From the IMG/VR virus record IMGVR_UViG_3300027970_000012, positions 1-64,000 of that record: a stretch of 64,000 bases of DNA, one strand, 5' to 3'. The position numbers and the translations under genes were made by a program. The notes below the pieces were generated by a model, which worked only from the letters and a program-made list of their open reading frames with translations, had not been told where the DNA came from and did no database searches. Below are positions 1,230 to 55,680 of this stretch, piece by piece. Within the stretch, counting starts at the first letter, position 1. Every line of letters begins with the position of its first letter. The DNA comes from a virus.

Positions 1230-1901
1230 TTAATCTCTGTCTATTGGTGTTAATCTACCCTTACCTTTAGCGGCTTGTTTTGATGATGAGGGCCTACCTA
1301 CTTTGGCGTATTGGTCACCATCACGATCTATTTTTCCAAATCCCATTCTTTGGTAGAGTTTACCTCTAGCATTTTTTTCTATAATCCGAGTATTTCCTTT
1401 AGAATCTTTATATGTATGGTCATTGGATGATGGGCTATTCATTACTACTGAGTGAGAAGGTAGTCTTGGCTCAACATGTCTTTTCCAAACATATTTGGCA
1501 TTACGTATCATATGTTGCTTTTCTCTATCCGACATTGTGGAGTTATTGTCACTATGACGCCAGGATATTCCATGAGTCGGTTTTCCATCGACAGAATTTT
1601 CGTCGTTAAGTTTATATATATTAAATTCAACTCCAGTTGGTCTATGATGAAATGTTACCATTGTTGTTCCGTGATTTATCTTTAAATGAGGATGAGAATG
1701 TGTCTTCAAATTTGGATTATCCGCACCATGAAAAACATTATCTTTGGTTTTCTCCCAATGTTTATTCTTTTTATATTCACTACTAAATGGCCTACTTTGC
1801 CTATTGAATGCTTTGCTACGTGGAGTTTGTCCAGAAGGTAACTTATCTGTAGGAGCGTAATATTTCTCCACAAGTAGCATAAACTCTTGAAATGTTTTCA
1901 T
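1230..1901 (-). CDS. Putative head-cargo protein with T4 internal-protein-like N-terminus (paralogue A)
   Basis: The 223-residue basic protein starts MKTFQEFMLLVEKYYAP. T4 internal head proteins IPI and IPIII start MKTYQEFIAEA, the capsid-targeting peptide cut by gp21 after I-A-E. Here the corresponding cut would follow L-V-E at residue 12. The C-terminal third (GKLYQRMGFGKID, then KVGRP and QAAKGKGRLTP) is nearly shared with the next gene upstream, so the two are tandem paralogues. The LYQRMGFG string resembles the end of a GNAT acetyltransferase fold, but I cannot confirm that. It probably is a late protein packed in the prohead; its role after injection is unknown. Confidence 0.7.
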   Translation of the reverse strand: MKTFQEFMLLVEKYYAPTDKLPSGQTPRSKAFNRQSRPFSSEYKKNKHWEKTKDNVFHGADNPNLKTHSHPHLKINHGTTMVTFHHRPTGVEFNIYKLNDENSVDGKPTHGISWRHSDNNSTMSDREKQHMIRNAKYVWKRHVEPRLPSHSVVMNSPSSNDHTYKDSKGNTRIIEKNARGKLYQRMGFGKIDRDGDQYAKVGRPSSSKQAAKGKGRLTPIDRD

Positions 1902-1904
1902 GGC

Positions 1905-2606
1905 TTAATCGTCATACTCTACGTAATTTAATGGAGTTAATCTCTTTTTACCCTTAGCTGCTTGTTTTGGTGAAAGTGGCCTACCTACTTTAGCATGTTG
2001 ATTTCTGTGAGTCGGATCTATTTTTCCAAATCCCATTCTTTGGTAGAGCTTACCTCTAGTGTTTTTAAATTTAGTTCTCAACCCCCCGCTCTCATCTCTA
2101 TATGTGCTATTATTATGTTGAGGACTATTTCTAGCTAAACTATGAGAGGGTAATCTATTTTCAATATGGTCCTTCCACATTTTTTTAGCATTGGTTGCAA
2201 TTACTTGCCTTGTCTTATCACTAGCATTATGTATATTTGGATGAGTATGAGACCAACTCACCAAATGAGTTGGTTTACCATTCACATCATCTTTTTTAGT
2301 GGTTCTATATTTAATTCCAGTTTTTTTATTATAAATATCGTGATTTCCCTGATATGAATCTATCTCTAAATCTGGATGCGGCTTATTGTCCACCTCAGGA
2401 CTATCTGCACCTCGTGCAACTTCCCAATGTGTTCTACGTCTTTGAATATGTTGTCTAGTGAGTTGTCTTCTTCCTGTTTTGCTTATTGAAACAGGCCCAT
2501 AAGCTTTGGCTTTAGCCTTTTCTCTAGGGGTTTTTCCTGAAGGAAGTTTTTCATTAGGTTCATAATATTTTTCTACCAGTAATATAAACTCTTGAAAGGT
2601 TCTCAT
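1905..2606 (-). CDS. Putative head-cargo protein with T4 internal-protein-like N-terminus (paralogue B)
   Basis: The 233-residue basic protein starts MRTFQEFILLVEKYYEP, nearly the same as its downstream neighbour, followed in both by KLPSG-TPR. Both share a central VNGKPTH..SW element, a PSHS-NSP motif and a C-terminal GKLYQRMGFGKID...AKVGRP..KQAAKGK block. The N-terminus fits a capsid-targeting sequence with predicted gp21 cleavage after L-V-E. Only 3 nt separate the two genes, so they are co-transcribed products of a tandem duplication whose middle portions have diverged. Enzymatic function is not known; a GNAT-like fold is a guess from the C-terminal motif. Confidence 0.7.
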   Translation of the reverse strand: MRTFQEFILLVEKYYEPNEKLPSGKTPREKAKAKAYGPVSISKTGRRQLTRQHIQRRRTHWEVARGADSPEVDNKPHPDLEIDSYQGNHDIYNKKTGIKYRTTKKDDVNGKPTHLVSWSHTHPNIHNASDKTRQVIATNAKKMWKDHIENRLPSHSLARNSPQHNNSTYRDESGGLRTKFKNTRGKLYQRMGFGKIDPTHRNQHAKVGRPLSPKQAAKGKKRLTPLNYVEYDD

Positions 2607-2609
2607 AAA

Positions 2610-2984
2610 TCAACCTTCAATATATTCCTTCCAATACTCATAGGAGGTTTGTGGACGAGAGGTTTCTTCATTCGTCAGTTCACCATCAGCTTCAGTATCT
2701 TGAGTGTCTTCTTCTGGTTCATCTATTTGAATCATAGATTTCCAATATTGATAAGGAGTCATTTCAACCTCTTCTTGAAGTTCTTTCTTGGGTCTGTGCT
2801 TGTATGGAGAATTATATTGAATTTTTCGTATAGATTTTTTGATATTTCTACCTGGCTTATGATTGTCTCCAGGAGCGGCTACTGCAGTAATGGCTTCATA
2901 AATCTCTTCCCAAGTATATTCACTTAAATCATATCCTTCTTCTACTAGAGCGTCTACCCACTCATTAAATTCTTCGTAATTCAT
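2610..2984 (-). CDS. Acidic conserved cyanophage protein
   Basis: The 124-residue protein begins MNYEEFNEWVDALVEEG, then DLSEYTWEEIYEAI. From memory this N-terminal signature is common in cyanomyoviruses. The middle is basic (KKSIRKI, RPKKEL) and the C-terminus acidic with two YxYWKxxI elements (YQYWKSMI, YEYWKEYI), an internal repeat. The L-V-E near residue 15 would fit gp21 processing. It has its own late promoter (3007-3013) and is followed 3 nt later by the cargo-like paralogues. It is probably virion-associated; biochemical function is unknown. Confidence 0.65.
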   Translation of the reverse strand: MNYEEFNEWVDALVEEGYDLSEYTWEEIYEAITAVAAPGDNHKPGRNIKKSIRKIQYNSPYKHRPKKELQEEVEMTPYQYWKSMIQIDEPEEDTQDTEADGELTNEETSRPQTSYEYWKEYIEG

Positions 2985-3006
2985 TTTTTGGTATTCCTAC
3001 TAAGAG

Positions 3007-3013
3007 TATTTAT
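3007..3013 (-). promoter_or_regulatory. Late promoter
   Basis: GAATAAATAC on the minus strand lies about 23 nt upstream of the ATG at 2984 and just past the end of the previous gene. It heads the 2984-738 group. Confidence 0.65.
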
Positions 3014-3020
3014 TCAAAGT

Positions 3021-4643
3021 CTATTTTTTAGCTTGATATGACCTAGTGACGACTTCTCCAGACTTAGTTGGATGTGCTAGATGAGTTTTGATTTTTGGCG
3101 CACTTGGAGTTGAAGTTTTATGAGCTTGAAAGGCTTTATGAACCTTTACAGCATCATCATACATATGAATTTTTTTAGCATCCAATCTCTTTGCAAGATT
3201 TTTTGCAATCTCTAACTTCTTCTTACCAATATCTGGTCCTTTCATTCCTCCAGTGTAATGAATTTTATTCTGTGGAACTTTAAGTCCGTGCTTTTTGAAT
3301 TGTGAATGAAATTCTTTTGGGTCATCAAACTTTGCACGAGCAGTAATTAAATGAACATTATGCCCTCTTGCCTCTTTTCTCTTAATATCCTTCACTACTC
3401 TCTTGTTTGGAGAGGAAGTTTCTTTAAATTTTTTAGCACTTCTGAATTCACTAAAATCATAATCGTGGCCTGGAGCCAATTTATGAGTATTGAATTCTTG
3501 ATTGGTTAAACTCTGAACTCTCTTTCCAGAAGAGTCCTTTACGTGAACCTGCACATTTGGTCTGTTACCCTTTCCGTGAGTAAAAATTGTTTCGTCCACA
3601 TCATAAGCGTGAACAGTTCTCTTTGGACGAGTTCCTCTTGATTTTTCTTGTAGATACCCAAATGCTTCTTTAAGTTTCGCACTGGGCAAAGAATAAATTC
3701 TTTCCAATGATTTTCTATTTTTTCCCAGCTCAACATTCTGTTTGGAGACTTTTTTCTTTTCCTGTGCAGCAAGCTTTTTAAGATTTGGGTCTTCATTTTC
3801 ACCACCACGCATATGTACTCCAATCTCAGCTACTCTTTTAGCTCTATTAGAGAGTTCCATTGCCTTACGGTCTGCATTGAGACCTGATGCTACATTTGCA
3901 CCCGACACTAGATTTGAAATTTTATTTAGAGAACGATTTGCTCTTTTATTATTAAAATTTTGAAATTTCTCAGAAAGATAATTCTGCATAGCTTCAAAAT
4001 CTTCTTTCGCCAAGTATCCATTGGACCAAAACTCATCCCACTTTCTTTTTGCAGCCTGAGCATGACCTCTTGAAGATGGAGTAAATCCAGGAATATTAGA
4101 CCTAATTCTACGAACTGGTTGTGAGAAAGATGCTCTAGGAGTATGAGTTTTTGAAACTCTCTTAATTGGTGCTCTTACAATATGATACTTTGGAACTTCA
4201 GGTAGAGGCTTTACTGCATCCTCTTCCTCTCTTCTTTCAATTCTATCTTTTTTTGAAAGTGCTCTCTTCGGATTTCCAGAACGAAACGCAACTTTTACTC
4301 CTTTGGGTAGGTTATTACTTCCCGCACTTGGAGAATATTGAGCATTTCCAACTTTTTCTAAATTCTTATAACGTTCTCTATGAGAAAGATACTCACTTTT
4401 AGAAACGCCTTCATCCAAGTCAAAAGCTTCTCCAATCTTACTCTTAGAGAAGAAATCTACAATCTTTCTTTCTTTCCGTGCTTTTGGTGAAGCTGATTCT
4501 TCTCTGCGCTGCTTTCTCTTTGCTAAAATCTCTTCTGCTTTTTGTTGAAAGGATTTTTGACCAGAAATATCTGGATGATTAGATGCACGTGCCTCTAAGA
4601 ACAATTCAACAAAAACATCATAATTTTTTGGATAACTACTCAT
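3021..4643 (-). CDS. Large basic virion-type protein with C-terminal HAD-like domain
   Basis: The ATG at 4643 (MSSYPKNYDVFVEL) is preferred over the one 9 nt upstream because AAAAGGAT sits about 10 nt before it. The first 340 residues are basic and low-complexity, with an N-terminal VFVELFLEAR resembling the cargo-type N-termini. Residues from about 345 to the end look like a HAD-superfamily hydrolase: DVDETIF (motif I, DxDxT-like), LITARA (motif II), a Lys-rich stretch and MYDDAVKV (acidic motif IV). Polynucleotide 3'-phosphatase or another phosphatase activity is possible, but the substrate cannot be read. A late promoter lies at 4664-4670. It is probably a head-internal or structural protein carrying an enzyme domain. 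Confidence 0.75.
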   Translation of the reverse strand: MSSYPKNYDVFVELFLEARASNHPDISGQKSFQQKAEEILAKRKQRREESASPKARKERKIVDFFSKSKIGEAFDLDEGVSKSEYLSHRERYKNLEKVGNAQYSPSAGSNNLPKGVKVAFRSGNPKRALSKKDRIERREEEDAVKPLPEVPKYHIVRAPIKRVSKTHTPRASFSQPVRRIRSNIPGFTPSSRGHAQAAKRKWDEFWSNGYLAKEDFEAMQNYLSEKFQNFNNKRANRSLNKISNLVSGANVASGLNADRKAMELSNRAKRVAEIGVHMRGGENEDPNLKKLAAQEKKKVSKQNVELGKNRKSLERIYSLPSAKLKEAFGYLQEKSRGTRPKRTVHAYDVDETIFTHGKGNRPNVQVHVKDSSGKRVQSLTNQEFNTHKLAPGHDYDFSEFRSAKKFKETSSPNKRVVKDIKRKEARGHNVHLITARAKFDDPKEFHSQFKKHGLKVPQNKIHYTGGMKGPDIGKKKLEIAKNLAKRLDAKKIHMYDDAVKVHKAFQAHKTSTPSAPKIKTHLAHPTKSGEVVTRSYQAKK

Positions 4644-6005: not shown

Positions 6006-8120
6006 CTACAATTTAAAGTTTACAAAGGTATCAGTGTCAATATCTTGTTTGATTGCTCCTACTAAATACGAAATTTTTTCAGTCTCCTGTGGGCTTTCTT
6101 GAACTTCCTTACTATTCAACCAATGTGAAGTCCAGGGTAAAGGATTATTCTTTGCGGGAATATCAAACATAGGAGCTAATCCAATTGCCTTTCTTCTACG
6201 ATTTGCAATCCAATCCACGTAATTGAAAAGTAATTTGTCGTTCAATCCAATCATACTTCCATCACGAAACAGATACTGTGCCCATCGTTTTTCTTCATTC
6301 ACAGCAAGTTCAAACATTTTATCTACATAATGTTTCTCTTCCTGAATGATTCCAAGCATTTCTGGGTCATCTCCCTGCCTCCATTTAGTGAGAATTTTTT
6401 GTGTGAGATTTAAATGACAATTTCCAGATACAATGACTTTATTCTCATAACGAACAACTAACATTCCACTGGGAACGGAGACACAGAATACATCTCCATC
6501 ATAGTTATAAGTTGAAGTTGTTTTTGGTTTGGCTCCAGCGCAATAGTAATCTCTATCTTGAATGATGGTTATGCGATGAACATTCTTATATCTATCCTGT
6601 CTATGGTCTATTTGAATACCTCTATGTGCTCTTCTTCCAGAAAGAGCGGCAATGGCTTGAACCATATCAGCTACATCTGAATTTGTAGTAGAGAAATAAA
6701 TGTTAGAATAATCTCCATTTCTTAGATGACCATCCCAGTGAGAAAGCTCTTCTAGAAATTCAATACACCAAGCGCCACCAACTTCTTCTAGATTAACCCA
6801 AGAGAAATCCTTAACAACATCGTGCTCTATAGGAACCCATACAGTATACACGTAAGAAATTTTATCATTATGTATAAATTCTATTTTCGTATGTCTAAAT
6901 TGAATCTGCTCTAGAATATGGTCCAGCCTATCAATTTTTCTGGGTTTTGTAAGAGTAAAAGTTGTAATATTACACCCATTGAATTTTCCATTTCTGAGGT
7001 CTTTATTCTGTATTGACCCATCTGCCTGCAGAGCAATTTTAAATCTTTCAACATATGAAAGTTCGGCTCTACCACCAGTTTTAACCCCAGAAGCAATAAA
7101 ATGTTTCAAAAAAGAAGAATTAAATTCTTCCGCAGTATTTTCTTTAATGTCTCTAGTGATGCTATCTCTCCAGATAATTCTATGGTCTGGGGTGACTACC
7201 TGTTTGAAGTGTCCTTTGATATTGGAGAACTCATACACTAAACCAGAATGAGGTTTTTTAGTGTAATGTAATGGATGCACAAATTCAATTGAACCATTCG
7301 TATTATATTGAGCCACTTTTTCTGTCTGGTCTAGGTCCTCAAATTTCTTCCATCCAATTGGTGTTAAAACTTCAGTTCCTTTCACAAAACAGCTTTCATC
7401 ACGCGAAATCAGTGAGATAATCTTGGCCGAACCTTCCATCAGTTTTAGCTCACCAAAAGCGAAACTACAGGCGAAGCTCACATAAAAGCGAATTCCTTCA
7501 AGAATATTCACATTCATAATTGCCCGATATAGCTTCCGTTTCAGTTCTATTCTTGTGGATAATCCGACATCAATTCCTTCATTCGCAAATCTCCACATAT
7601 TTGTAGAGCCATATTGTTGAGCATAATTGATAAAGTCATTATAGGACTCAGTTACTGATGCCGCTCTCTCTAGAATCATCTCATCATGAATGATAGTATC
7701 AAATACTTCTGTTGGATTTGCATATACATTTTTGATGATATGAGTATATGAGCGACTATGAATCATCTCAAAGAACTCCCAGGCAGTCATCGCAGCTTCC
7801 AATTCAGGAAGAGAGCAATAAGGAATGAATGCCATTCCTGGTCCTCTTCCTTGAACGCTATCTAATAGAATTTGATACTTTAGATTTGAAGTGAATATAT
7901 GCTTCTGTTCTGGGCGAAGAGTCATATAATCAGATTTATCTTTCTGTAAAGAAATCTCCTCGGGTCTCCAGAAGAAACTCAATTGTTGTTGAGTGAGTTT
8001 TTCAAATTCTGGGTATTTGAATGTGTCATATCTTTGAACTCCTAGAGGAGCCCCAAAGAACATAGGTGATTTAGTCGTATCAATATCCTCGGTATTAAAT
8101 ACCGTCATTCCATTTATCAT
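6006..8120 (-). CDS. nrdB: Ribonucleotide reductase class I small subunit NrdB, with intein
   Basis: The 704-codon reading frame encodes a NrdB of about 380 residues plus a 324-residue in-frame intein. NrdB carries the diiron centre and tyrosyl radical that, with NrdA, reduce ribonucleotides for phage DNA synthesis. Extein features: HDEMILERAASV for the first carboxylate/His pair, NILEGIRFYVSFACSF for the middle helix, and SRDES + CHLN for the E..H iron ligands. The intein (residues 244-567) splits the last motif between DES and CHLN, so unspliced protein cannot build the metal site. NrdB lies directly downstream of fractured nrdA (9 nt gap), forming one operon. Confidence 0.95.
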   Translation of the reverse strand: MINGMTVFNTEDIDTTKSPMFFGAPLGVQRYDTFKYPEFEKLTQQQLSFFWRPEEISLQKDKSDYMTLRPEQKHIFTSNLKYQILLDSVQGRGPGMAFIPYCSLPELEAAMTAWEFFEMIHSRSYTHIIKNVYANPTEVFDTIIHDEMILERAASVTESYNDFINYAQQYGSTNMWRFANEGIDVGLSTRIELKRKLYRAIMNVNILEGIRFYVSFACSFAFGELKLMEGSAKIISLISRDESCFVKGTEVLTPIGWKKFEDLDQTEKVAQYNTNGSIEFVHPLHYTKKPHSGLVYEFSNIKGHFKQVVTPDHRIIWRDSITRDIKENTAEEFNSSFLKHFIASGVKTGGRAELSYVERFKIALQADGSIQNKDLRNGKFNGCNITTFTLTKPRKIDRLDHILEQIQFRHTKIEFIHNDKISYVYTVWVPIEHDVVKDFSWVNLEEVGGAWCIEFLEELSHWDGHLRNGDYSNIYFSTTNSDVADMVQAIAALSGRRAHRGIQIDHRQDRYKNVHRITIIQDRDYYCAGAKPKTTSTYNYDGDVFCVSVPSGMLVVRYENKVIVSGNCHLNLTQKILTKWRQGDDPEMLGIIQEEKHYVDKMFELAVNEEKRWAQYLFRDGSMIGLNDKLLFNYVDWIANRRRKAIGLAPMFDIPAKNNPLPWTSHWLNSKEVQESPQETEKISYLVGAIKQDIDTDTFVNFKL
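6420..7391 (-). mobile_element. NrdB cis-splicing intein with LAGLIDADG endonuclease
   Basis: Residues 244-567 of the NrdB frame. Block A is CFVKGTEVLTPIGWKKF with Cys1; block B is VVTPDHRI (TPDH); the end is VISGN-type (KVIVSGN) followed by Cys+1. The penultimate residue is Gly, not the usual His. Two LAGLIDADG-like motifs, FKIALQADGSI and LEELSHWDGHL, indicate a DOD homing endonuclease. It looks complete and should be a class 1 intein. Confidence 0.9.
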
Positions 8121-8129
8121 AATATTACC

Positions 8130-9218
8130 TTAAATTGAACAGCTATCACAAGTTTCATCTTGTGAGTTTAAAATTTCATCAATCAAATTTTGAGTTTCAT
8201 CCTTCGCAGAGGAATCAGTTTTTCCATCATATGTGTTTTGATAGTAAGCAGTTTTATGTCCTTTAGCATATGCGGAAAGAAAATCATTTACAATCACGCT
8301 CATTGGAACTTCATTATTTGGATAGTGCTCTGGATTGTAATTCCAATTTGCACTAATAGCTTGGTCAAAGAACTTCTGAATCATCGCAACAATATTAAAG
8401 TATCCCTCATTGGATTTAATATCCCACAATAGAGTATAATTATTTTTGAGTGTATTATACTGTGGGACGATTTGCTTAATAGGTCCTTTCTTTGATTGTT
8501 TGATGGATAGATAACCTCTAGGAGGCTCAATTCCATTTGTAGCATTAGAGGTCACACTAGATGACTCACTGGGAAGAATGCAAGTAAGAGTATTATTTCT
8601 CAGGCCATATTGAATGATACTCTGACGTAATTCTTCCCAATCGTGTTGATATGAGACCTCGCAGATATCATCAATTTCTTTTTTGTAGGTGTCTATGGGT
8701 AGAATTCCCTGAGAATATTTGGACTGATAAAAATCAGAACAAACTCCCTTCTCCTTAGCTAATTGATTTGAAGCCTTAAGTAGGTAATATTGAATACTTT
8801 CCGCAAGACCGTGAACTGCTTTCCAAGCTTCTGGGTCTTCATATTTGAATCCTAGTTTTGCAAGATAATGTGCAAGCCCAATAACCCCTATTCCTAAAGT
8901 TCTTCCTCCTTTTGCAGAAAGTTCAGCAGCTCTAATTGGATAGGACTGATAATCAATCAATTCGTCTAAAGACCTGACACACAAATCACACAATTCTTCA
9001 AGTTCTTCATCAGACTTAATTTTACCTACGTTTAAAGCTTTTAGAATACACAATGCAATTCTTCCGTTCTCATCTTCAAGACTTTGAATAGGTTTTGTTA
9101 GAAGAGTTATTTCTGTACAATTATGAATTAAGATATCATTCGCAAAGAAATTATGATTATCCTCCACAGTAATATCATATACTGGAATTTCGTTTTCAAG
9201 ATGTTCAATTTTTAGCAT
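8130..9218 (-). CDS. nrdA: NrdA C-terminal half with N-terminal split-intein IntC
   Basis: The 362-residue protein begins with a 33-residue IntC (MLKIEHLENEIPV...NDILIHN) followed by Cys+1 and the NrdA C-extein (CTEITLLTKP). That Cys corresponds to the catalytic thiyl-radical Cys of class I RNR (NLC-EI motif, E. coli C439). The C-extein has the NrdA core (GRTLGIGVIGLAHYLAKLG), PSESSS for the phosphate site, the tyrosine-containing region and a C-terminal redox pair (ETCDSCSI). It requires trans-splicing with the product of 9920-11545 for activity. The start overlaps the upstream endonuclease gene by 14 nt. Confidence 0.93.
   Translation of the reverse strand: MLKIEHLENEIPVYDITVEDNHNFFANDILIHNCTEITLLTKPIQSLEDENGRIALCILKALNVGKIKSDEELEELCDLCVRSLDELIDYQSYPIRAAELSAKGGRTLGIGVIGLAHYLAKLGFKYEDPEAWKAVHGLAESIQYYLLKASNQLAKEKGVCSDFYQSKYSQGILPIDTYKKEIDDICEVSYQHDWEELRQSIIQYGLRNNTLTCILPSESSSVTSNATNGIEPPRGYLSIKQSKKGPIKQIVPQYNTLKNNYTLLWDIKSNEGYFNIVAMIQKFFDQAISANWNYNPEHYPNNEVPMSVIVNDFLSAYAKGHKTAYYQNTYDGKTDSSAKDETQNLIDEILNSQDETCDSCSI
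9120..9218 (-). mobile_element. NrdA split intein, IntC half
   Basis: 33 residues: block F VYDITVEDNHNFFANDIL and block G IHN followed by Cys. It matches the form of the known NrdA-2 type split intein (DITVKDNSNFFANNILVHN, recalled from the fractured-gene literature). The partner IntN is at 9923-10240. Confidence 0.9.
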
Positions 9219-9865
9219 TTTTTTCTAGTTCGGTTAAGATAATTCGTCTGTGTCTATAATATGGATTGTAACTCAATCCTGTTTTTTCTTCAAGTATTTT
9301 AGAATAATTTATATACTTCCCACCAAATCTATTTTTTGAAAAGTGTTTTGGAAAAGTCAAATTTAAATGAGTTATCGCAAACTCTCTCAATACCATAATC
9401 CCAGGAATAAACTTATATATTTTAATAAATTTTATTCCTATTTCAATTAAATCCTCATCAGTTAATCCATTCCAATTTGGATTAGAATACCCAGTTGAGT
9501 TGAGTGTTAATGAATTAAACCAATTGTCCTGGACTTCTTTAGAACATCTGGGAATCATCCACCCGCCTGTTCCACCTAAAGTTGCATTATAACCTTTTTT
9601 AGTATTACTTTCAAAAAGTTTAATAAAATGGATTTCTTTTTCGTTTATGATATTAACATTCTCAGTTTGGTAAGTTTCAATAATGGATAAATCCCAACAA
9701 TCTTCACCATATTTTCTAATTGCGGAATGAAATCTAAATTTAGAGCCATTTCTTGCACAAGAGAGGTGCCGATTCCATCTATGTGATAGAGAATATTCAG
9801 TTTTTCCTATGTAGCATTTACTATTTTTTTAAATTTGTGATTTTATAAATGATGTGAGTTTTCAT
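9205..9865 (-). pseudogene. GIY-YIG homing endonuclease between the nrdA halves, frameshifted in an A7 run
   Basis: Read from the ATG at 9863-9865 the frame gives MKTHIIYKITNLKK and then TAG, right after a run of seven A. One base shifted, it continues SKCYIGKTEYSLSHRWNRHL...FHSAIRKYGED...EKEIHFIKLF...GYNATLGGTGGW and runs without a stop to 9205. Together these make a GIY-YIG nuclease: IIYKITNL / CYIGKT, catalytic Arg in HRWNRH, Glu in NEKEIHFIK, and a C-terminal DNA-binding region. The longest intact ATG frame is 9205-9558, only the C-terminal part. It is either a recent frameshift, a sequencing error in the homopolymer, or a slippage-dependent gene. Confidence 0.85.
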
Positions 9866-9866
9866 T

Positions 9867-9920
9867 ATATTAAGTGTAATCTCACGGCTAGTTATAATAT
9901 ATAGAGATTACACTTAATAT
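9867..9920 (-). repeat. Perfect 17-bp inverted repeat after the nrdA IntN gene
   Basis: 9867-9883 and 9904-9920 are exact reverse complements (arms containing TTAAGTGTAATCTC), with a 20-nt AT-rich loop. It overlaps the last base of the IntN stop codon and ends 2 nt before the endonuclease ATG. There is no T-run after it, so it is not a classical terminator. It could protect or process the mRNA, or sequester the endonuclease translation start. Confidence 0.85.
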
Positions 9921-11545
9921 CAATTGATTATTAATTCATCAGTTTCAACCAAATCTTTTACCATCACATATCCACGATTTTTCGTAAATACTTTGTGTCC
10001 TGGTGTGGCTACGATACTCTTACCCGTTTCTTCATCAGTAATTCTCATTACTTCTGATTTCGGAGAAGTCTGTGCAAATGCAGTGATTTGTTTCCATTCT
10101 AAAATATCACTTTTTATGTTATAAGAAAGGACTTTTATATTAGAGTAGCTATTCATAAATTTCGGCAAATCCTGAATTTCAATTCTATCCCACTCATCCT
10201 CATCAAGTAATACTTCTATTTTAGTATCACCAGAAACGCATAAATTGCTCATTGCAACTTGTTCTATAAATGAACTGTGAGAGTTGCAGTGGTCTATATT
10301 CATAATATAGATTCTACCAGTTTCCGCTCTTTCTTTGAGTAAGTCAAGAATCAGTTTTTGTGCCCCAACAACTTTTCTTGGAATGGTGAGGTCTTTTTCA
10401 TATTTTGTATAGAGTTCATCAAACTCGGGCATTCCGAATACATCATATAGACCAGGAACATTCTGAGGAGAGAAGAGTGTGATTTCTGCATTCTGAATGA
10501 ATCGTTCGTAGAATATCTTGGACAACTGAATGCCGTAATCCAACTTTCGGGCACGATTTTCCTCAGTTCCTTTGTTGTTCTTAAGAACGAGAACTTCCTC
10601 AATTTCAGTATGCCAAATTGGAAAATAAACCGTAGCGCTGCCTTGACGAATTCCACCTTGATGACAAGATTTGAGAGAGCTTTCAAATTTCTTCAGAAAT
10701 GGAATGATACCCGTTGATAGAACTTCTCCATTCCGAATCTTACTATTGATTGCACGTAGTCTTCCGATATTCAATCCAATTCCAGCTCTACCCGCCACAT
10801 ACTTCATCATCGCGCCATCAGAAGCAATGATGCTGTCTAGAGTATCGTCTACATCAATGAGAGTGCAGGAGGCAAATTGCCGAGATGGAGTTCTCACTCC
10901 CGCCATAATAGGAGTAGGAATATTAATTTTATGTTTGGAGACCGCATCATAATATCTCTTCACATAATCCATACGAATTGTTGAATTATAGTTTGAGAAC
11001 ATAGTCAGTGCAATCATCATATATGCAAACTGAGGCGTTTCGTATAGCGTTGATGTGCTTCGGTCTTGAACCAAATACTTATCTACGACTTGACGTAGAC
11101 CAGCATAAGTGAAGAGATAATCTCTATGATGGTCAATATATTCTCCAAGAGCATTTAGTTCTTGCTCAGTATACTTCTCAAGAACTTCCTTATCGTATAC
11201 ACCCAAATTTACACAATTTTGAATGTGTTCGTAGAATTTAGGATGGTCCTTAAGTCTACCATAGATTTTCTTACGAATAGAAAACAGTAGAAGTCTTGCT
11301 GCAACGTATTGATAGTTTGGAGAATCCAAAGAAATCAAATCGGATGCAGATTTGATGAGAATTTCCTGAATATCTGAGGTAGTAATTCCATCATACAATT
11401 GTATTCCTGAAGAAATTTCAACTTGCGATGCAGATACTCCAGATAATCCAAAGCAGGCTTCATCCACCATTCTATGAATTTTATCTAACAGGAGTATCTC
11501 ATCCTCTCCACTGCGCTTCTTAACTCTAATTTCTTTGTTGCTCAT
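9920..11545 (-). CDS. nrdA: NrdA N-terminal half ending in split-intein IntN
   Basis: The start at 11545 (MSNKEIRVKKRSGEDE) is chosen because AGGAGT lies 10 nt upstream; an in-frame ATG at 11575 sits inside the end of gp61. It encodes 435 residues of NrdA: an ATP-cone-like N-terminus, LFTYAGLRQVVDKY, PTPIMAGVRTPSRQFASC (containing the first redox Cys), and NIGRLRAINS. It ends at VAMSNL and is fused to a 106-residue IntN (CVSGDTKIEV...DELIIN) and stop. It binds nucleotide substrates and effectors once spliced to the C-half. It is downstream of gp61 in the same operon. Confidence 0.93.
   Translation of the reverse strand: MSNKEIRVKKRSGEDEILLLDKIHRMVDEACFGLSGVSASQVEISSGIQLYDGITTSDIQEILIKSASDLISLDSPNYQYVAARLLLFSIRKKIYGRLKDHPKFYEHIQNCVNLGVYDKEVLEKYTEQELNALGEYIDHHRDYLFTYAGLRQVVDKYLVQDRSTSTLYETPQFAYMMIALTMFSNYNSTIRMDYVKRYYDAVSKHKINIPTPIMAGVRTPSRQFASCTLIDVDDTLDSIIASDGAMMKYVAGRAGIGLNIGRLRAINSKIRNGEVLSTGIIPFLKKFESSLKSCHQGGIRQGSATVYFPIWHTEIEEVLVLKNNKGTEENRARKLDYGIQLSKIFYERFIQNAEITLFSPQNVPGLYDVFGMPEFDELYTKYEKDLTIPRKVVGAQKLILDLLKERAETGRIYIMNIDHCNSHSSFIEQVAMSNLCVSGDTKIEVLLDEDEWDRIEIQDLPKFMNSYSNIKVLSYNIKSDILEWKQITAFAQTSPKSEVMRITDEETGKSIVATPGHKVFTKNRGYVMVKDLVETDELIIN
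9923..10240 (-). mobile_element. NrdA split intein, IntN half
   Basis: 106 residues starting at Cys1. Block A is CVSGDTKIEVLL and block B is SIVATPGHKVFT (TPGH), ending DLVETDELIIN. It splits at the canonical position where a homing endonuclease would sit, and a free endonuclease gene does lie between the halves. This is the fractured-gene arrangement. Confidence 0.9.
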
Positions 11546-11559
11546 AATTGATTTGACTC

Positions 11560-12552
11560 CTAAATTCTTTTCCAACCTATCATTTTAGCTTTTGCCGCTA
11601 ATCCACGAAAAGTATTATCTTTAATAATATTTTCTGGAGATAATCCTGCAATTATCATATCATTCACATCTTTATACTCCAAATTTTTTGGCCAAACTAC
11701 AATAGAGTCTCCTGATTCTATTGTAGTTTCCATACGATGAACAATGTGTTTATTTCTTCTTTCATTATCATATACATAAACAAAATTACAATCTTTAAAC
11801 TTATGTAAAGTTTTGATATTCAAATCAGCTCCTACCATAGCTATAGAATTTGGTATAAACATACTATCAAATGGCCCTTCCAAAACATATATTGGAGAAT
11901 TCACATTCACATTGTCCAATCCATAAATCTTCGGTAGTTCATTATTTAGAATTACGGTGATGTACTTCACTGTAGAATTTTTGGACAGTGCTCTACCCTG
12001 AAATCCGAAGATTTGATTTTCATATATGAGTGGAATTACAATTCTACTCTCTTCATAATCTGTAGTCTCAAATGTGTGTATTTGAGAATTAGTCCACTTC
12101 TTAAAACTTTCACAGAAGTATAATTGATTCCATTTTGATTTGGGGATTTTTCTAGATTCAATATACTTTCGGGCAATATGAGTTTCGGATAACTCTGAAA
12201 TCGTGAGTAAATCAAAATACTTTTTACTAAATGTGGGTTTCTTTTTTGGTGGAGATGAAACTAATTTTAATGTTTTTGAACCTTTATTCTTAAACTTCTC
12301 AAAAACATATCTATCATATATCGATTTGTCTATGTCCTTCAGTACCATAGATATATTACAAGATTTTCCGCAATTATGACATTTATAATTATATGTGTCT
12401 TTCACTGGATATAAATATCCTCGCGCTTTGTTTTTATATCTTTCACTGTCTCCACAATAAAAACATCTAAAATTGTAGGTGTTACCTTTTTTTATAAATT
12501 TAAGTAGTTGTGGTGAAATTTCGGCAATATACTTTTCCTCAATAAATGACAT
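11560..12552 (-). CDS. 61: DNA primase gp61
   Basis: The 330-residue protein is a T4 gp61-type primase that makes RNA primers at the fork with gp41 helicase. The N-terminal zinc ribbon shows CFYCGDS (29-35) and CHNCGKS (58-64). A TOPRIM-type catalytic region follows: IYVLEGPFDSMFIPNSIA and FVYVYDNERRN with the acidic residues. FGFQGRAL marks the middle. It overlaps the upstream AUG context of nrdA only in the noncoding frame. A sigma-70-type promoter lies at 12576-12604, so gp61, nrdA and nrdB form an early/middle operon. Confidence 0.92.
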   Translation of the reverse strand: MSFIEEKYIAEISPQLLKFIKKGNTYNFRCFYCGDSERYKNKARGYLYPVKDTYNYKCHNCGKSCNISMVLKDIDKSIYDRYVFEKFKNKGSKTLKLVSSPPKKKPTFSKKYFDLLTISELSETHIARKYIESRKIPKSKWNQLYFCESFKKWTNSQIHTFETTDYEESRIVIPLIYENQIFGFQGRALSKNSTVKYITVILNNELPKIYGLDNVNVNSPIYVLEGPFDSMFIPNSIAMVGADLNIKTLHKFKDCNFVYVYDNERRNKHIVHRMETTIESGDSIVVWPKNLEYKDVNDMIIAGLSPENIIKDNTFRGLAAKAKMIGWKRI

Positions 12553-18237: not shown

Positions 18238-18777
18238 TTAGTATTTAAATTTCAAAAATTTATCCATTTTATTGGATTGTTCTTCAGGATTATAGTCGGA
18301 TTCTAATTCTTCGTCAAGAGCTTCTATTTGAGCAGATTGCTCAACGTTATATAGCTTCATTTTTGTTTTGTCTATACCTACTACAAATCTCTTGAATTTA
18401 GAAACATCATTATCACGATTTCGGAGTTGTTTGAACATTACCTGTCCTAAATTAGACAACTCTTCTGTATTAATGAGAGCAACTGCAACGTCAGCAGTCA
18501 TCATAGTTCCAAAACTATTTTTTGTTAGTATGCCATTACAATAAAATAAATTATCCCCCGATACTCCGATATTAATAGTTTCCAATTCTCCTAATTCTAT
18601 AATCTCTACAATTTCATCAACATAGCTTATGTTATTGTCGGTTATTGTATCTTTCTCTTGTTTTTCTTTGTCTAATTTAATCAACAATTCCGTAAGTTCA
18701 AATAAATCTAGATTACTCAATCCAGATGAAATCATTTTTTCTGCCGTTCTAAAACATTTTAATTCTAAATTATCCAT
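18238..18777 (-). CDS. 41: gp41 helicase C-terminal part with split-intein IntC
   Basis: The 179-residue product has an 87-residue N-terminal segment ending in a canonical IntC (LETINIGVSGDNLFYCNGILTKN), then Ser+1 and the 92-residue gp41 C-extein (SFGTMMTADVAVALINTEEL). The C-extein supplies the end of the DnaB-type ATPase core (arginine-finger region, VGIDKTKMKLYNV) and C-terminal tail. The first ~50 residues (MDNLELKCFRTAEKM..., LFELTELLIKLDKEK) are not intein-like and form an unusual extension. Only 9 nt separate it from the IntN ORF, with no endonuclease between. Confidence 0.92.
   Translation of the reverse strand: MDNLELKCFRTAEKMISSGLSNLDLFELTELLIKLDKEKQEKDTITDNNISYVDEIVEIIELGELETINIGVSGDNLFYCNGILTKNSFGTMMTADVAVALINTEELSNLGQVMFKQLRNRDNDVSKFKRFVVGIDKTKMKLYNVEQSAQIEALDEELESDYNPEEQSNKMDKFLKFKY
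18517..18777 (-). mobile_element. gp41 split intein, IntC half with N-terminal extension
   Basis: Blocks F and G (INIGVSGDNLFYCNGIL, TKN) end in Asn before Ser+1; the penultimate residue is Lys where His is usual. The canonical IntC would be about 35 residues, but this one is preceded by about 50 extra charged helical residues of unknown role. Confidence 0.88.
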
Positions 18778-18786
18778 TTATAATCT

Positions 18787-20157
18787 CTATGAAAGTGAAT
18801 TTAATTTGTCGCCAGGAGTAAGCCCAGTATTGATTGATATTCTACCCCTATTTGTTGGAAATATATGGTCCTTACTCACAATAAGTTCTTTACCACTCTT
18901 AGTCCTAATTTTAACACAATCCTTGAATTTTTTATGATGAGTCAACATAACTGTCTTATATCCATCGTGTGAAGTAATTTGGTCTCCGACACAAATATCT
19001 TGAATTTGCTTTATTGCGCCGTCTCTAAGTTCAACTTTTTCATTCACATAGATGCATTCAGAAACATCAGTCATATCTGGGTCAGAGGATGTTGATCCAC
19101 CTCTACCACTTTGAGTAGCACTCAGAATGGGAACATCATACTCTACAGCAAGTGCTCTAAGTTCTTCTGCAACACTTTTAATATAAGTGTATGAGTTAAT
19201 ATTTGAGTTCTTCTTATATCTATTAGAAGCACAAATATTCAGATAATCAATGAAGATGATGTCTGGATGAAAATGTTTCTTCAGAGCAAGTTCACTCAAA
19301 AGACTTTTGAAGTGCCCAACGTGACCACATCCAGTTGGATATTCTTTAACAATAAACTTCCCGTGAGTTTTTTGAGCCAATTTAATAATTCTAGACTCAA
19401 ATTTTTCTTTCGGAATACTACTCAGTTCGGAGATATTCACATTCAGTAGATTTGAGTCTATTCTCTGAGCGACTTTCTCCTCCGACATTTCTAGACTAAT
19501 GTAGAGAACATTCTTACCCTGAGCTAGAAATGAGCTTGCAAAAGAACACATTGACAATGACTTGCCCGCATTAGGAGCAGACATAATCAGGAATAGGGTT
19601 TTCTTAGAGAGACCACCACCTGTAATTTTATTGAAGTAATCTATATCAAATGGAAGCTTATCCTCTTTACGAGTATAATATTCAAATCTTCTTTCATAGT
19701 CCTCAATTAAGTCGTGACCAATATGTTCATCAAATGAGATAGATAATGCATCCTGCAGAATTCCAGGAATAGCGTCTCTATCCTTAACCTCATCTCCACC
19801 ATCTGCAATACGAATACTTTCCATCAGTGCAAGATAGATTGCTCTGTCTCTACACCATTTCTCAGTGTTATCCACTAACCATTTTAAGTCTACGTGACTA
19901 TCATCTAGACTCCTAATGTAGTTGCAGATATTCTTATATCCATCTTCATTCAAATCTGTTCTCTTTTCAGTTTCAATGAGTAGAATTTCTTTTGTTGCTA
20001 AGTCTTCATAGGAAATGATGAACTTACTAATTTCCTCAAATAATATTCTTTCGTGAGAATTATCAAAATATTCAGGATTGATAAAGGGTAATACCTTTTT
20101 ATAATAATCACTATTGAAAATTAAATTTCGGAGAATAGTGGTTTCAATTTTTTCCAT
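18787..20157 (-). CDS. 41: gp41 replicative helicase N-terminal part with split-intein IntN
   Basis: The 456-residue product contains 367 residues of T4 gp41 (DnaB family) and an 89-residue IntN. Helicase features: Walker A SAPNAGKS (about 193-200), LYISLEMSEEKVAQR (motif 1a region), Walker B IIFIDYLNI (about 300-308), LSATQSGRGG. The extein stops at DMTDVSE, followed by Cys1 of the intein. gp41 unwinds the fork and loads gp61. Active hexamers require trans-splicing with 18238-18777. It lies downstream of the oxygenase gene with a 1-nt overlap. Confidence 0.93.
   Translation of the reverse strand: MEKIETTILRNLIFNSDYYKKVLPFINPEYFDNSHERILFEEISKFIISYEDLATKEILLIETEKRTDLNEDGYKNICNYIRSLDDSHVDLKWLVDNTEKWCRDRAIYLALMESIRIADGGDEVKDRDAIPGILQDALSISFDEHIGHDLIEDYERRFEYYTRKEDKLPFDIDYFNKITGGGLSKKTLFLIMSAPNAGKSLSMCSFASSFLAQGKNVLYISLEMSEEKVAQRIDSNLLNVNISELSSIPKEKFESRIIKLAQKTHGKFIVKEYPTGCGHVGHFKSLLSELALKKHFHPDIIFIDYLNICASNRYKKNSNINSYTYIKSVAEELRALAVEYDVPILSATQSGRGGSTSSDPDMTDVSECIYVNEKVELRDGAIKQIQDICVGDQITSHDGYKTVMLTHHKKFKDCVKIRTKSGKELIVSKDHIFPTNRGRISINTGLTPGDKLNSLS
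18790..19056 (-). mobile_element. gp41 split intein, IntN half
   Basis: 89 residues beginning CIYVNEKVELRDGAIKQI. Block B is LIVSKDHIFPT (S-K-D-H) and the end is LTPGDKLNSLS. The form is that of the gp41-type split inteins known from marine metagenomes (ending in a short GLK-GD tail). The insertion point is DVSE / SFG. Confidence 0.9.
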
Positions 20158-20714
20158 TATTTGTAATGCAGATACGTGCTTAGAATATATTTTGAATTGG
20201 AATTAGGCTCAAGTCCTCTATGTGGGAACATCCACATAGGAGGAAATATAATCAGAGTTCCTCTTTTGGGAACAACAGTAAGGTCTATAAATTCGGTTTG
20301 TCCTCCAGCTTCAACATCATTGAGATACCACATAAATGCAAGAAATCTACGAGCAGTTTCATAATCTTGAACATCTACGTGTGTATCAAAAGCTTCATTC
20401 TCTTCTGGAGAGTATCTCTTAATTCTGTAGTGTTCAAAAGCGTGACTCTCTGGAAATACACCTTTGTTCATAAATTCGTAATATGAATCTCTATACTCCA
20501 AAGTTTTTTGAATCAGATAGTTCTGAACATTATTTACCTCTTCCGATAATTCTCGGTTTTCGGTTAAATTGAATTGCGTGAAATTGGGTCTTCTATCGTT
20601 CTCAATTTTTTCTTGAAATTCAAATTGAGTATCAAATAGATTTACGAGAAAGTCGCATACATTTGGCTCCAAAGCTTCTTCATGTATTTGTATTAAATCA
20701 TTTAATTCAACCAT
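20157..20714 (-). CDS. 2-oxoglutarate/Fe(II) oxygenase
   Basis: The ATG at 20714 (MVELNDLIQIHEEAL) overlaps the uvsX end by 8 nt and is preferred over the ATG at 20741. The double-stranded beta-helix motif is clear: H-x-D in DTHVDVQDY, GGQTEFIDLTVVPKRG, distal His in FPHRGLEP and the 2OG-binding Arg after it. This family (prolyl-4-hydroxylase-like) is common in cyanophages. Substrates are unknown, with protein, nucleobase or host-metabolite hydroxylation all possible. It sits between uvsX and gp41 in the replication operon. Confidence 0.9.
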   Translation of the reverse strand: MVELNDLIQIHEEALEPNVCDFLVNLFDTQFEFQEKIENDRRPNFTQFNLTENRELSEEVNNVQNYLIQKTLEYRDSYYEFMNKGVFPESHAFEHYRIKRYSPEENEAFDTHVDVQDYETARRFLAFMWYLNDVEAGGQTEFIDLTVVPKRGTLIIFPPMWMFPHRGLEPNSNSKYILSTYLHYK

Positions 20715-22164
20715 ATGCAAACTCCGATTTTGCTGCTTCATTCAATGCTTCTAGAATTTCTGGAGTAAAATACTTTTCTGGATTACCGTAAATGGTTTTT
20801 CCATATTGAGTAGTTCCATCTGAAACTTTATACCGAGTTCCAACTTTTTCAAAAATATTATATTTTTCTGCTAATTCCAGAAGTCCGTAGTATCTATCCA
20901 ATCCTCTTTCGTCATAATATAGTCTCATTTCAACTTCTTGATTTTCTTTACTCAATCTAGATTTAAATGTTTTAGCTTTGAGAATAACTCCAACTACATC
21001 AGTTCCGTCTTTTTCCTTAGATTTAGAAAGTTCTAATATTGTAGAAGAGGAATAGATAAGCCCAGTTCCGCCACTTTGGACCTGAGGAGGTCCATATCCA
21101 CCCACATTAGCATATAGGTGATTAGTCACAATCATCGGAATCTTAGCCTGTCCGAGCTTCAGAGTTAACATCCTAAAGCAAGCCTTGATGAGTGCAGCTT
21201 TAGTCATATCCTTTGTATCTTTTTCTAACAAAGTATCATTAATTTCTTTATTCGTAGACAACATTCCTAGACTATCCAATACAAAAATACAAGAATTTCT
21301 TGCTTGTTCTGGAGTCTTAAGATATAAATCTACTGCTTTGAGTGCTTTGGTTCGGAAATCTTCAATCGTGACTACATTCAATACAATCACCCGAGCTAAA
21401 TCTATACCTCTACTTGCTAATAGGGATTTTGTTACTGCGGACTCAGTATCAAAATATAGACAATACCCTGTGGGATTGGCTTCTAGAAAATTCTTTACTG
21501 TTGCTAATGCGAACCACGTATTATGATGATAAATTCCAGATTTCGGATTACTAATATACCAATGTGGGGCATCTATTGAAATATCATACACACTCTCAAT
21601 TCCCAATGGTGTTTTTTCTACAACTACTTTTTTACCATATGTAGACATAATTTCTTTGGCATCAATTGCCGATACTTCAATTCCAGTATGGTAATCACAA
21701 AAATTATGATTAACTGAGCATTCAAATGTATCTTCGCCATCAAAATCTAGACGAATCACCTCGTTATTATGTTTAGTTACAACTTCATTAATTCTAGTAA
21801 ATCCAGTTGGGGTTCTAACATAAATTTCATCAGCTACTTCATATGGAACCTCGTGTTCTCCACTCCCATACAATTTATATAATTGCTCATATGTTAATTC
21901 AGATTCAATCAGGTCTTCATTTGCATATATTGTAATTTTTTCCGAGCCTCTAGCGCATTTCCCAGTTCCAGAAAGTCCAGAATATGCAGTAATTTTATTT
22001 CCAGATACTCCACCAAAGATACTTCCCGATACCAGAGCATTTAAAATATACGAACCAGTATCCACATACGTTTCTGTCTCATCAATATCTTTAGCTAATT
22101 GTGTATACTCTCCGCCAATTTCCTTCACTAAATCTGAAAGAAAATTTAAATTTTGTTCCGTCAT
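20707..22164 (-). CDS. uvsX: UvsX RecA-like recombinase with intein in the P-loop
   Basis: The 485-residue frame contains a 339-residue UvsX and a 146-residue intein. UvsX coats ssDNA and drives strand exchange and recombination-dependent replication. Walker A is GLSGTGK + T, cut by the intein exactly between Lys and Thr. Walker B is CIFVLDSLGML. The C-terminal part (QVQSGGTGLIYSS, the L2-loop region) is intact. A strong sigma-70 promoter precedes it, and the gene heads the uvsX-oxygenase-gp41-mazG operon. Confidence 0.94.
   Translation of the reverse strand: MTEQNLNFLSDLVKEIGGEYTQLAKDIDETETYVDTGSYILNALVSGSIFGGVSGNKITAYSGLSGTGKCARGSEKITIYANEDLIESELTYEQLYKLYGSGEHEVPYEVADEIYVRTPTGFTRINEVVTKHNNEVIRLDFDGEDTFECSVNHNFCDYHTGIEVSAIDAKEIMSTYGKKVVVEKTPLGIESVYDISIDAPHWYISNPKSGIYHHNTWFALATVKNFLEANPTGYCLYFDTESAVTKSLLASRGIDLARVIVLNVVTIEDFRTKALKAVDLYLKTPEQARNSCIFVLDSLGMLSTNKEINDTLLEKDTKDMTKAALIKACFRMLTLKLGQAKIPMIVTNHLYANVGGYGPPQVQSGGTGLIYSSSTILELSKSKEKDGTDVVGVILKAKTFKSRLSKENQEVEMRLYYDERGLDRYYGLLELAEKYNIFEKVGTRYKVSDGTTQYGKTIYGNPEKYFTPEILEALNEAAKSEFAYG
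21520..21957 (-). mobile_element. UvsX cis-splicing mini-intein
   Basis: Residues 70-215 of the frame: block A CARGSEKITIYANE, block B FECSVNHNFCDY (S-V-N-H), block F VYDISIDAPHWYISN, block G IYHHN followed by Thr+1. No LAGLIDADG motif is present; only a short linker replaces the endonuclease. Homing would need help from another nuclease, or it is now fixed. Confidence 0.92.
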
Positions 22165-54407: not shown

Positions 54408-55655
54408 TTATCCCATATAAAATTCGGACGAAACATCTCCATACTCATCTAAATTCCATACTTCCATCGGCATATTTTCTGTATTCGCCATCATCCAAAC
54501 ATCTCCAGTTTCTTTTTCAACTGTAATTTCATCATCATTCTCTAATCCAGTATTAATAAATCCAAATGGAGCCATATCTTGTTCAATCTGCTCCTTCTGT
54601 TCAAGATACATTCTCTTACGAATGTCATTGTTGGTAATTTCTTTGAAGTATTCCTGAACAACTAACCAAGAGAAAATTACGATACACATACAAAGGTCAT
54701 CATTCGTTCCAATTTCAGCTTGATATGAATTATTTTTGGATATGAATGTAGTTAACTCACTAATAATATCAAAGTCTTCAATGATAAGTTTATTGTCCTC
54801 AATGATGGTTTTCATATTAGAACAACCCACTCTCTTTACTTGCTTGGACATTTTGATTCCTAACTGTGAGGTCTTACCCGAAAATCCTTGTCCAACTAAT
54901 TGTCCAGCTCTACCTCTCATAGAACACATTAGAAGATTTTCATACTCAAGTTCATATTGTAAGTCTTTGGCTACTTGGTCTCCTACACTTGCGATTTCAA
55001 TGAGAACATAAGCTTTGTTATATGAATTTGCTACCTTATAAATGATATCTGGAAGAAGTAGTGGCTTAAGTTCATTATTTTTATACTTTGCAACAATCTT
55101 GTATGGAATATTTGTGATGTCGTATATGATGAATGCGTGATAATCCTTACCCGTTCCTTCTGAAACGTCCACAGTCATAATGTAATTGTGTTCCTCTATA
55201 GGAGGTTCATACACATCAAGTCCTTCAGACCGAGTAATTGGGTCGTTGTATATTAGGTTTTGTAGTTTTGATGAGGTAATGAGCGTATCAACAGAACCTA
55301 GGAAACTACAGTTGTGTGATACTATATTGTTAGAATAATAAAGATGGTCTTCTCCAGAGTTGACAATATCAAATAATTCTACTTCTTTCTTAATGGTTCG
55401 GTATGATTTGAGAAATGTTCCACCATTCTTGGTAAAAACTTCTGTTGTCTTATTTAAATTCTTAGCTTTGACAATACCATCTATTGTAGAGAGTGGATGG
55501 TCCAAAGAGCACTTGAGTTCATTTCCGTCTTCAAATATTAAATGAATATATTTGTTCTTCTTAATCTTATTGACGCCCAGAAAAGATTGAAATCCATTTG
55601 GAGTTGAGATTTTAATCTTTTTATGATTTAATACTATGGTTTCTGGAAGCTTCAT
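54408..55655 (-). CDS. 17: Terminase large subunit gp17, C-terminal part with atypical IntC
   Basis: The 415-residue product has a 115-residue IntC followed by Cys+1 and the 300-residue gp17 nuclease half (CSFLGSVDTLITSSKLQNL). Nuclease acidic residues are visible: MTVDVSEGTGKDYHAF, VLIEIASVGDQ and IGTNDDLCMCIVIFSWL. It cuts concatemeric DNA at the start and end of packaging and must be joined to the ATPase half. The IntC includes block B (ELKCSLDHPLS), which is normally on IntN, so the split lies unusually early. The start is 25 nt after the stop of a small remnant ORF. Confidence 0.93.
   Translation of the reverse strand: MKLPETIVLNHKKIKISTPNGFQSFLGVNKIKKNKYIHLIFEDGNELKCSLDHPLSTIDGIVKAKNLNKTTEVFTKNGGTFLKSYRTIKKEVELFDIVNSGEDHLYYSNNIVSHNCSFLGSVDTLITSSKLQNLIYNDPITRSEGLDVYEPPIEEHNYIMTVDVSEGTGKDYHAFIIYDITNIPYKIVAKYKNNELKPLLLPDIIYKVANSYNKAYVLIEIASVGDQVAKDLQYELEYENLLMCSMRGRAGQLVGQGFSGKTSQLGIKMSKQVKRVGCSNMKTIIEDNKLIIEDFDIISELTTFISKNNSYQAEIGTNDDLCMCIVIFSWLVVQEYFKEITNNDIRKRMYLEQKEQIEQDMAPFGFINTGLENDDEITVEKETGDVWMMANTENMPMEVWNLDEYGDVSSEFYMG
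55311..55655 (-). mobile_element. gp17 atypically split intein, long IntC half
   Basis: 115 residues: IKISTPNGFQSFLGVNKI, block B CSLDHPLS, block F ELFDIVNSGEDHLYYSNNI, block G VSHN before Cys+1. It resembles the AceL-TerL-type IntC (STPNGF-like start, S/T-x-x-H, end VSHN-C), recalled from the literature. The partner IntN is only 34 residues (55775-55876). Confidence 0.88.
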
Positions 55656-55680
55656 TCAGTTAGGAACTTTATACATCTAT

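What the first reader, a model, noticed from the sequence alone, without database searches (positions are those of the whole stretch)
18238..20157. Split intein in gp41 with an extra ~50 residues ahead of IntC
The IntN/IntC halves look normal, but the C-terminal ORF has about 50 additional charged helical residues before the IntC. There is no endonuclease between the halves and only a 9-nt gap. The extension could help halves associate, or be an exapted fragment.
Basis: partly seen in the sequence, partly recalled or inferred. Interest (0 to 1): 0.68.

Follow-up and report, generated by a model that had tools for sequence, protein, structure and literature searches.

The report
Split intein with a conserved helical arm
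In a marine T4-like phage the replication helicase is made in two pieces that an intein glues together, and the extra ~48 residues in front of the second intein half are not junk but a conserved helical module, kept in every related phage found, which probably helps the two halves find each other.

Summary
gp41 is broken into two same-frame ORFs 9 nt apart. IntN is 89 aa. IntC is 87 aa, against 37 in gp41-1 and 33 in this phage's own NrdA split intein. No endonuclease lies between the halves.

The extension is real and translated. It occurs in all 47 divergent loci aligned, starts at a conserved start codon, and is under purifying selection as strong as on the helicase extein (pN/pS 0.20 vs 0.19). 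In some relatives no alternative start would omit it. It matches no known family, the endonuclease or gp41. A scan with the extension alone found only IntC ORFs.

Relatives often carry a ~354-aa Vsr/DUF559-like endonuclease ORF between the halves. It comes or goes at least 9 times on the tree, yet the extension always stays. AlphaFold models the extension as a helical hairpin on a gp41-1-like Hint domain (pLDDT 90, pTM 0.81).

Best reading: a pre-folded acidic docking module on IntC that helps capture the basic half of IntN. The role is inferred. The clade also has an invariant penultimate Lys (not His) and an invariant His at the 'NX' position, described for cysteine-less inteins. This is a new variant of a known kind.

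The parts
19057..20157 (-). gp41 (DnaB-type replicative helicase) N-terminal extein, ends ...TDVSE
   Evidence: DnaB_C Pfam 3.3e-18 and phage_DnaB
18790..19056 (-). IntN, 89 aa, Cys1 ... LNSLS (stop TAG 18787-18789)
   Evidence: TIGR01445 intein_Nterm, below its cut-off; profile match to gp41-1 intein 6qaz
18934..18939 (-). His-His of IntN (IntN residues 40-41); the second His lies exactly 23 residues before the block B His, the NX-histidine position
   Evidence: invariant in 30 diverse IntN; hhalign with a Ser1 Pol intein, ungapped
18865..18867 (-). block B (N3) histidine, SKDH
   Evidence: invariant in alignment A7
18778..18786 (-). 9-nt gap AGATTATAA between IntN stop and IntC start; site of the ~1.1-kb endonuclease ORF in relatives
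18634..18777 (-). IntC N-terminal extension (residues 1-48), predicted helical hairpin (H 3-18 and H 25-45)
   Evidence: conservation and pN/pS, AlphaFold
18517..18633 (-). IntC core, residues 49-87, ...GDNLFYCNGILTKN; catalytic Asn87 at 18517-18519
   Evidence: profile match to gp41-1 intein IntC
18520..18522 (-). penultimate Lys86 where most inteins have His
   Evidence: 47 of 47 aligned loci have Lys; also in every partner IntC at this site found by an IntN-only scan
18238..18516 (-). Ser+1 and gp41 C-terminal extein (SFGTMM...), with stop
   Evidence: tblastn to cyanophage gp41; model of this part matches T4 gp41 structure 8dtp

Best explanation
A class 1 (Cys1/Ser+1) split intein interrupts the gp41 helicase. 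The ~48 residues ahead of the IntC core are a conserved, self-folding, acidic helical hairpin at the place where inteins usually carry an endonuclease. Shown: it is encoded behind a conserved start codon, conserved, under purifying selection, and predicted helical. Inferred: it folds before the rest of IntC, which is poorly ordered alone; together with the acidic IntC core it captures the basic second half of IntN, packs on the joined Hint domain and speeds or secures the correct pairing. Splicing then runs from Cys1 and Ser+1 through Asn87, giving intact gp41. With penultimate His replaced by Lys, the invariant NX-position His of IntN probably supplies part of the missing acid/base help.
For: Extension present in all 47 aligned loci from many metagenomes, including Shigella phage ESh36. 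An IntN-only scan, whose patterns did not include the extension, Lys86 or HH, gave IntC partners of 87 aa or more with Lys wherever downstream DNA was readable. pN/pS is 0.20 in the extension, 0.15 in the IntC core, 0.19 in the extein. The extension is retained through >=9 changes in endonuclease presence. The C-terminal ORF alone models with the extension helices at pLDDT 82-88 but most of the IntC core at 63-74; the whole intein models at mean pLDDT 90.1 and pTM 0.81 with the two helices at about 88-96. Mean net charges over 47 loci: IntN C-terminal half +5.8, IntC core -7.3, extension -3.6. The Hint part matches gp41-1 intein 6qaz/6riz, TM 0.91-0.92 on the target.
Against: No coordinates or inter-domain error were available, so hairpin-Hint contact is read only from a pTM higher than the Hint part alone would be expected to give. 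A covariation test between extension and IntN was inconclusive (47 sequences, about 36 effective). gp41-1 and this phage's NrdA intein have normal-length IntC without any extension, so one is not needed for trans-splicing in general. Nothing here shows that the intein splices. The window copy (and L002) has Asn at a block F position (residue 69) that is Asp in 96% of relatives.
Confidence: 0.55

Rival explanations
1. The hairpin is a solubility or anti-degradation cap: it keeps the short, unfolded IntC and the helicase tail from aggregating or being degraded until IntN arrives, without specific contacts to IntN.
For: The C-terminal ORF models with an ordered extension and a poorly ordered IntC core; the extension is acidic. 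Another natural split intein, Aes123 PolB1, loses most of its activity to aggregation of its N fragment (PMC11923092).
Against: Position-specific conservation (Asp47 invariant; Glu38, Lys42, Tyr52, Asp54 >=90%) is more than a generic solubility tag needs, and the joint model places the helices confidently.
Confidence: 0.2
2. The hairpin is a specificity key: it prevents wrong pairing in phages that carry several split inteins at once, rather than raising speed.
For: This phage has two other split inteins, NrdA and an atypically split TerL. L028, L055/L125 and L145 carry a second, gp41-1-type split intein in the same gp41 gene, where cross-pairing would misjoin the middle piece.
Against: Most relatives were not checked for other split inteins. 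The NrdA IntC in the same phage manages with 33 aa and no extension.
Confidence: 0.12
3. The extension serves the endonuclease or translation: a leader whose start overlaps the end of the endonuclease ORF and couples translation, with no role in splicing.
For: In relatives the endonuclease ORF ends a few to about two dozen nt past the IntC start codon.
Against: Conservation is at the amino acid level over 46 residues, far past the overlap, and persists in the 21 of 47 loci without the endonuclease, including the window. No profile similarity to the endonuclease.
Confidence: 0.06
4. The extension is an exapted or leftover fragment (of an endonuclease, of gp41 or another gene) with no selected function.
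For: It sits where inteins carry an endonuclease.
Against: pN/pS 0.20 over 19 pairs; invariant residues; no similarity to the endonuclease, gp41, Pfam or PDB; an extension-only scan gave only IntC ORFs.
Confidence: 0.04
5. The extension is not translated; IntC starts at a later codon.
For: The window has an internal ATG (codon 15) and TTG codons; M15 is not excluded in this one genome.
Against: A start codon about 87 codons before Asn recurs across relatives, several with GGAG-like sequences upstream. L005 has only a TTG at 68 as alternative and L037/L041 have none. Selection acts on residues 2-46.
Confidence: 0.03

Closest known systems
gp41-1 split intein (PDB 6qaz, 6riz)
   Same: Same host gene, same canonical split position, Cys1/Ser+1, closest solved relative by sequence (E 9e-31) and fold (TMt 0.91-0.92)
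   Different: Different insertion site in gp41 (TSE/SFG here; SGY/SSS for the gp41-1 type seen in L028); gp41-1 IntC has no extension, has penultimate His and no His at the NX position
'Fractured gene' split inteins with a free-standing endonuclease between the halves (Dassa et al. 2009, known to me, text not held)
   Same: Relatives of the window have exactly this layout, with a Vsr/DUF559-like ORF between the halves
   Different: The window allele has no endonuclease; whether that paper noted an IntC extension at this site could not be checked
Ssp/Npu DnaB inteins (1mi8, 4o1r)
   Same: DnaB-type helicase host, Hint fold, weak IntC similarity
   Different: Contiguous genes and no helical hairpin match; TM on the query stays about 0.60
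Cysteine-less (Ser1) inteins with the NX histidine (PolB16, Psp Pol; PMC10189870)
   Same: An invariant His 23 residues before the block B His, aligning ungapped with the Pol intein of 2cw7
   Different: Cys1 here; the residue before NX His is His or Ser, not Arg/Lys; penultimate residue is Lys

Membership tests
class 1 split intein | Hint fold reconstituted from two separately encoded halves | tested here: met
   two ORFs; read-through model pLDDT 90.1, Foldseek to intein structures
class 1 split intein | Cys/Ser/Thr at position 1, block B His, C-terminal Asn, Cys/Ser/Thr at +1 | tested here: met
   Cys1, His64 of IntN, Asn87, Ser88, invariant in alignments
class 1 split intein | penultimate His (common, not obligatory) | tested here: not met
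   Lys86 in the window and all aligned relatives
class 1 split intein | trans-splicing activity | not testable with these tools
   needs expression and assay
gp41-1-type split inteins | insertion site SGY/SSS in gp41 and short (~37 aa) IntC | tested here: not met
   window site is TSE/SFG with 87-aa IntC; both sites are occupied by different inteins in L028 and L055
fractured-gene arrangement | free-standing endonuclease gene between split-intein halves | tested here: not met
   9-nt gap in the window; met in 26 of 47 loci by gap size; DUF559-like by Pfam in three of five ORFs tested, weak, two just above the cut-off
Ser1 / NX-motif inteins | Ser at position 1 | tested here: not met
   Cys1 in the window and all of alignment A7
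Ser1 / NX-motif inteins | His at the NX position | tested here: met
   IntN His41, 23 residues before block B His

The most novel reading that the evidence does not exclude
A widespread clade of phage gp41 split inteins has acquired a dedicated partner-docking domain on IntC, conserved independently of the endonuclease. It also uses a different set of catalytic helpers in a Cys1 intein (penultimate Lys plus NX-position His in place of the penultimate His and usual block F His). Together these would form a distinct, orthogonal split-intein type.
Probability: 0.35. Interest if true: 0.75.

Novelty: new variant of a known kind. Interest (0 to 1): 0.55.

Why it matters
Natural split inteins are the tools of choice for protein ligation, and how their halves find each other is a main limit on speed and orthogonality. 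A conserved add-on domain on IntC, if it does aid pairing, would be a natural solution that can be grafted and tested. The clade also separates two questions that are usually tangled: what the endonuclease needs and what the split intein itself needs. The endonuclease comes and goes while the extension stays. The Lys-for-His exchange with an invariant NX-position His gives a natural test of which residues are needed for splicing chemistry in Cys1 inteins.

Tried and rejected
- Extension as endonuclease remnant: hhalign A6 vs A8, probability 0.2%.
- Extension as gp41 duplication: probability 1%.
- Known domain: Pfam, PHROGs and PDB by sequence gave nothing credible; Foldseek of the C-terminal ORF found only T4 gp41 for the extein part.
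- Extension elsewhere: a scan with the extension of a relative (L028) found only IntC ORFs. The A6 alignment was too diverse to scan. One genome-contig scan found no relative.
- Covariation extension-IntN: too few sequences, inconclusive.
- Ascertainment worry: the IntC profile scan used patterns containing ILTKNS, so Lys86 was re-tested with the IntN-only scan.
- ESh36 rows had to be left out of the structure jobs.
- Literature: Dassa 2009, Carvajal-Vallejos 2012 and Beyer 2020 are not held; a search for an IntC N-terminal extension found nothing relevant.

Full report
**Observation.** gp41-N plus IntN is 20157..18787 (-) and IntC plus gp41-C is 18777..18238 (-). They are separated by AGATTATAA and lie in the same frame. 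The exteins are DnaB-type helicase: Pfam DnaB_C 3.3e-18 for the N part, cyanophage gp41 by tblastn for the C part, and T4 gp41 structure 8dtp by fold. IntN is 89 aa. IntC is 87 aa to Asn87, and only its last ~33 residues are covered by the gp41-1 intein. As an internal control, the NrdA split intein of the same phage has a 33-aa IntC (MLKIEHLENEIPVYDITVEDNHNFFANDILIHN) without any extension.

**The extension is translated and selected.** A protein search of IMG/VR gave 58 loci, one of them the window's own sequence and the rest 46-77% identical, that carry it. A profile search added more divergent ones. In the 47-sequence alignment, plus two loci without a readable IntN, the extension aligns through its length; Asp47 is invariant, and Ala12, Glu38, Lys42, Tyr52 and Asp54 are at 90% or more. 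Pooled pN/pS over 19 pairs is 0.20 for residues 2-46, 0.15 for the IntC core and 0.19 for the extein. A start codon about 87 codons before Asn recurs. L005 has only a TTG at position 68 as alternative, and L037/L041 have none.

**It is independent of the endonuclease.** In 26 of 47 loci a gap of about 1 kb (971-1136 nt) separates the halves. In all but one of these (L059, where the ORF was read from the record's annotation instead) the gap scan found an ORF in it, about 350-376 aa where complete. DUF559, which I take to be a Vsr-like endonuclease fold (own knowledge), is just above the cut-off in two of five ORFs tested and weaker in a third. The ORF end overlaps the IntC start by a few to about two dozen nt. 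In the other 21, including the window, it is absent. On a tree from IntN and the IntC core the presence changes 13 times, at least 9 on well-supported branches, while the extension is present throughout. The extension shows no profile similarity to the endonuclease or to gp41, nor to Pfam or PDB.

**Structure.** Because both halves are in one frame, reading the two stops as Gln gives one 191-residue chain from the window's own DNA. With 61 rows AlphaFold gives mean pLDDT 90.1 and pTM 0.81; the extension forms helices at 100-115 and 123-146 of that chain. The C-terminal ORF alone gives the same two helices (pLDDT 82-88), while most of the IntC core is at 63-74. Foldseek puts the Hint part on gp41-1 intein (TMt 0.91-0.92) with TM on the query only 0.62, so the hairpin is not covered by the listed structures. 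Packing of the hairpin on the Hint domain is therefore inferred from the pTM, not seen.

**Charge.** Over 47 loci the IntN C-terminal half averages +5.8, the IntC core -7.3 and the extension -3.6. This is the reverse of the DnaE polarity (acidic IntN, basic IntC; own knowledge) and fits electrostatic capture with the extension adding to the acidic partner. A covariation test was inconclusive.

**Catalytic residues.** The penultimate residue is Lys in all aligned sequences. Because the profile scan used a Lys-containing pattern, this was re-tested by scanning with IntN only. Every partner IntC at this site that could be read had Lys and was 87 aa or longer, and every IntN that could be read had His-His. 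ESh36 has Ser-His. The second His lies 23 residues before the block B His and aligns without gaps to the His of a Pol intein segment. By position that is the NX histidine which PMC10189870 reports as conserved in Ser1 but not in Cys1 inteins; the equivalence rests on sequence alignment only. The block F His is mostly Asn here, and the window itself also has Asn for the usual block F Asp at residue 69. That NX His compensates for the missing penultimate His is a proposal, not shown.

**Context.** The phage carries two further split inteins (NrdA, and an atypically split TerL whose long half matches CatC 6dsl at 3e-19) and several contiguous ones. In L028, L055/L125 and L145 gp41 carries a second, gp41-1-type split intein upstream in the same gene. 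In L028 all three pieces are complete and the helicase would need two orthogonal joining reactions. This makes partner choice a plausible selective pressure.

**Verdict.** The feature is real. It is best read as a conserved IntC-borne docking module (0.55), with a solubility cap (0.2) and a pure specificity key (0.12) as main rivals. It is a new variant of the known split-intein kind. Whether earlier work on fractured genes already noted the extension could not be checked, because those papers are not held.

Noticed in passing
window 8130-11575 (-): A second split intein in NrdA: IntN at the end of 9920..11575, IntC as the first 33 aa of 8130..9218 (penultimate His, Cys+1), ~700-nt gap with an unassigned 117-aa ORF at 9205..9558.
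   Followed up: partly
window 54408-58951 (-): TerL has two contiguous inteins and an atypically split one: a short IntN that seems to begin with Ser (SFLPETLINIMVNGIVVETTIGELYNELSNQGTD) and a long IntC in 54408..55655 matching CatC (6dsl) at 3e-19.
   Followed up: partly
window 20707-22164 (-): UvsX/RecA carries a contiguous mini-intein (CARGSEK...IYHHN/T) with a helical-looking insert near its N-terminus and a Lys-His resembling an NX motif.
   Followed up: no
window 6006-8120 (-): NrdB carries a contiguous intein of about 310 residues, probably with an endonuclease domain.
   Followed up: no
L028 127-3252; also L055/L125 and L145: gp41 carries two different split inteins in one gene (gp41-1 type with penultimate His, then the Lys type). 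In L028 the gene is in three complete pieces, with a GIY-YIG-like ORF between the first two.
   Followed up: partly
L059 (Shigella phage ESh36, record marked UNVERIFIED) 1575-4555: A T4-like phage genome record with the same gp41 split intein, extension, penultimate Lys and a 332-aa ORF between the halves; the only such record found in the phage collection.
   Followed up: partly
window residue 69 of the IntC ORF (18571-18573, -): Asn instead of the near-invariant block F Asp, shared with close relative L002; might lower splicing efficiency.
   Followed up: no
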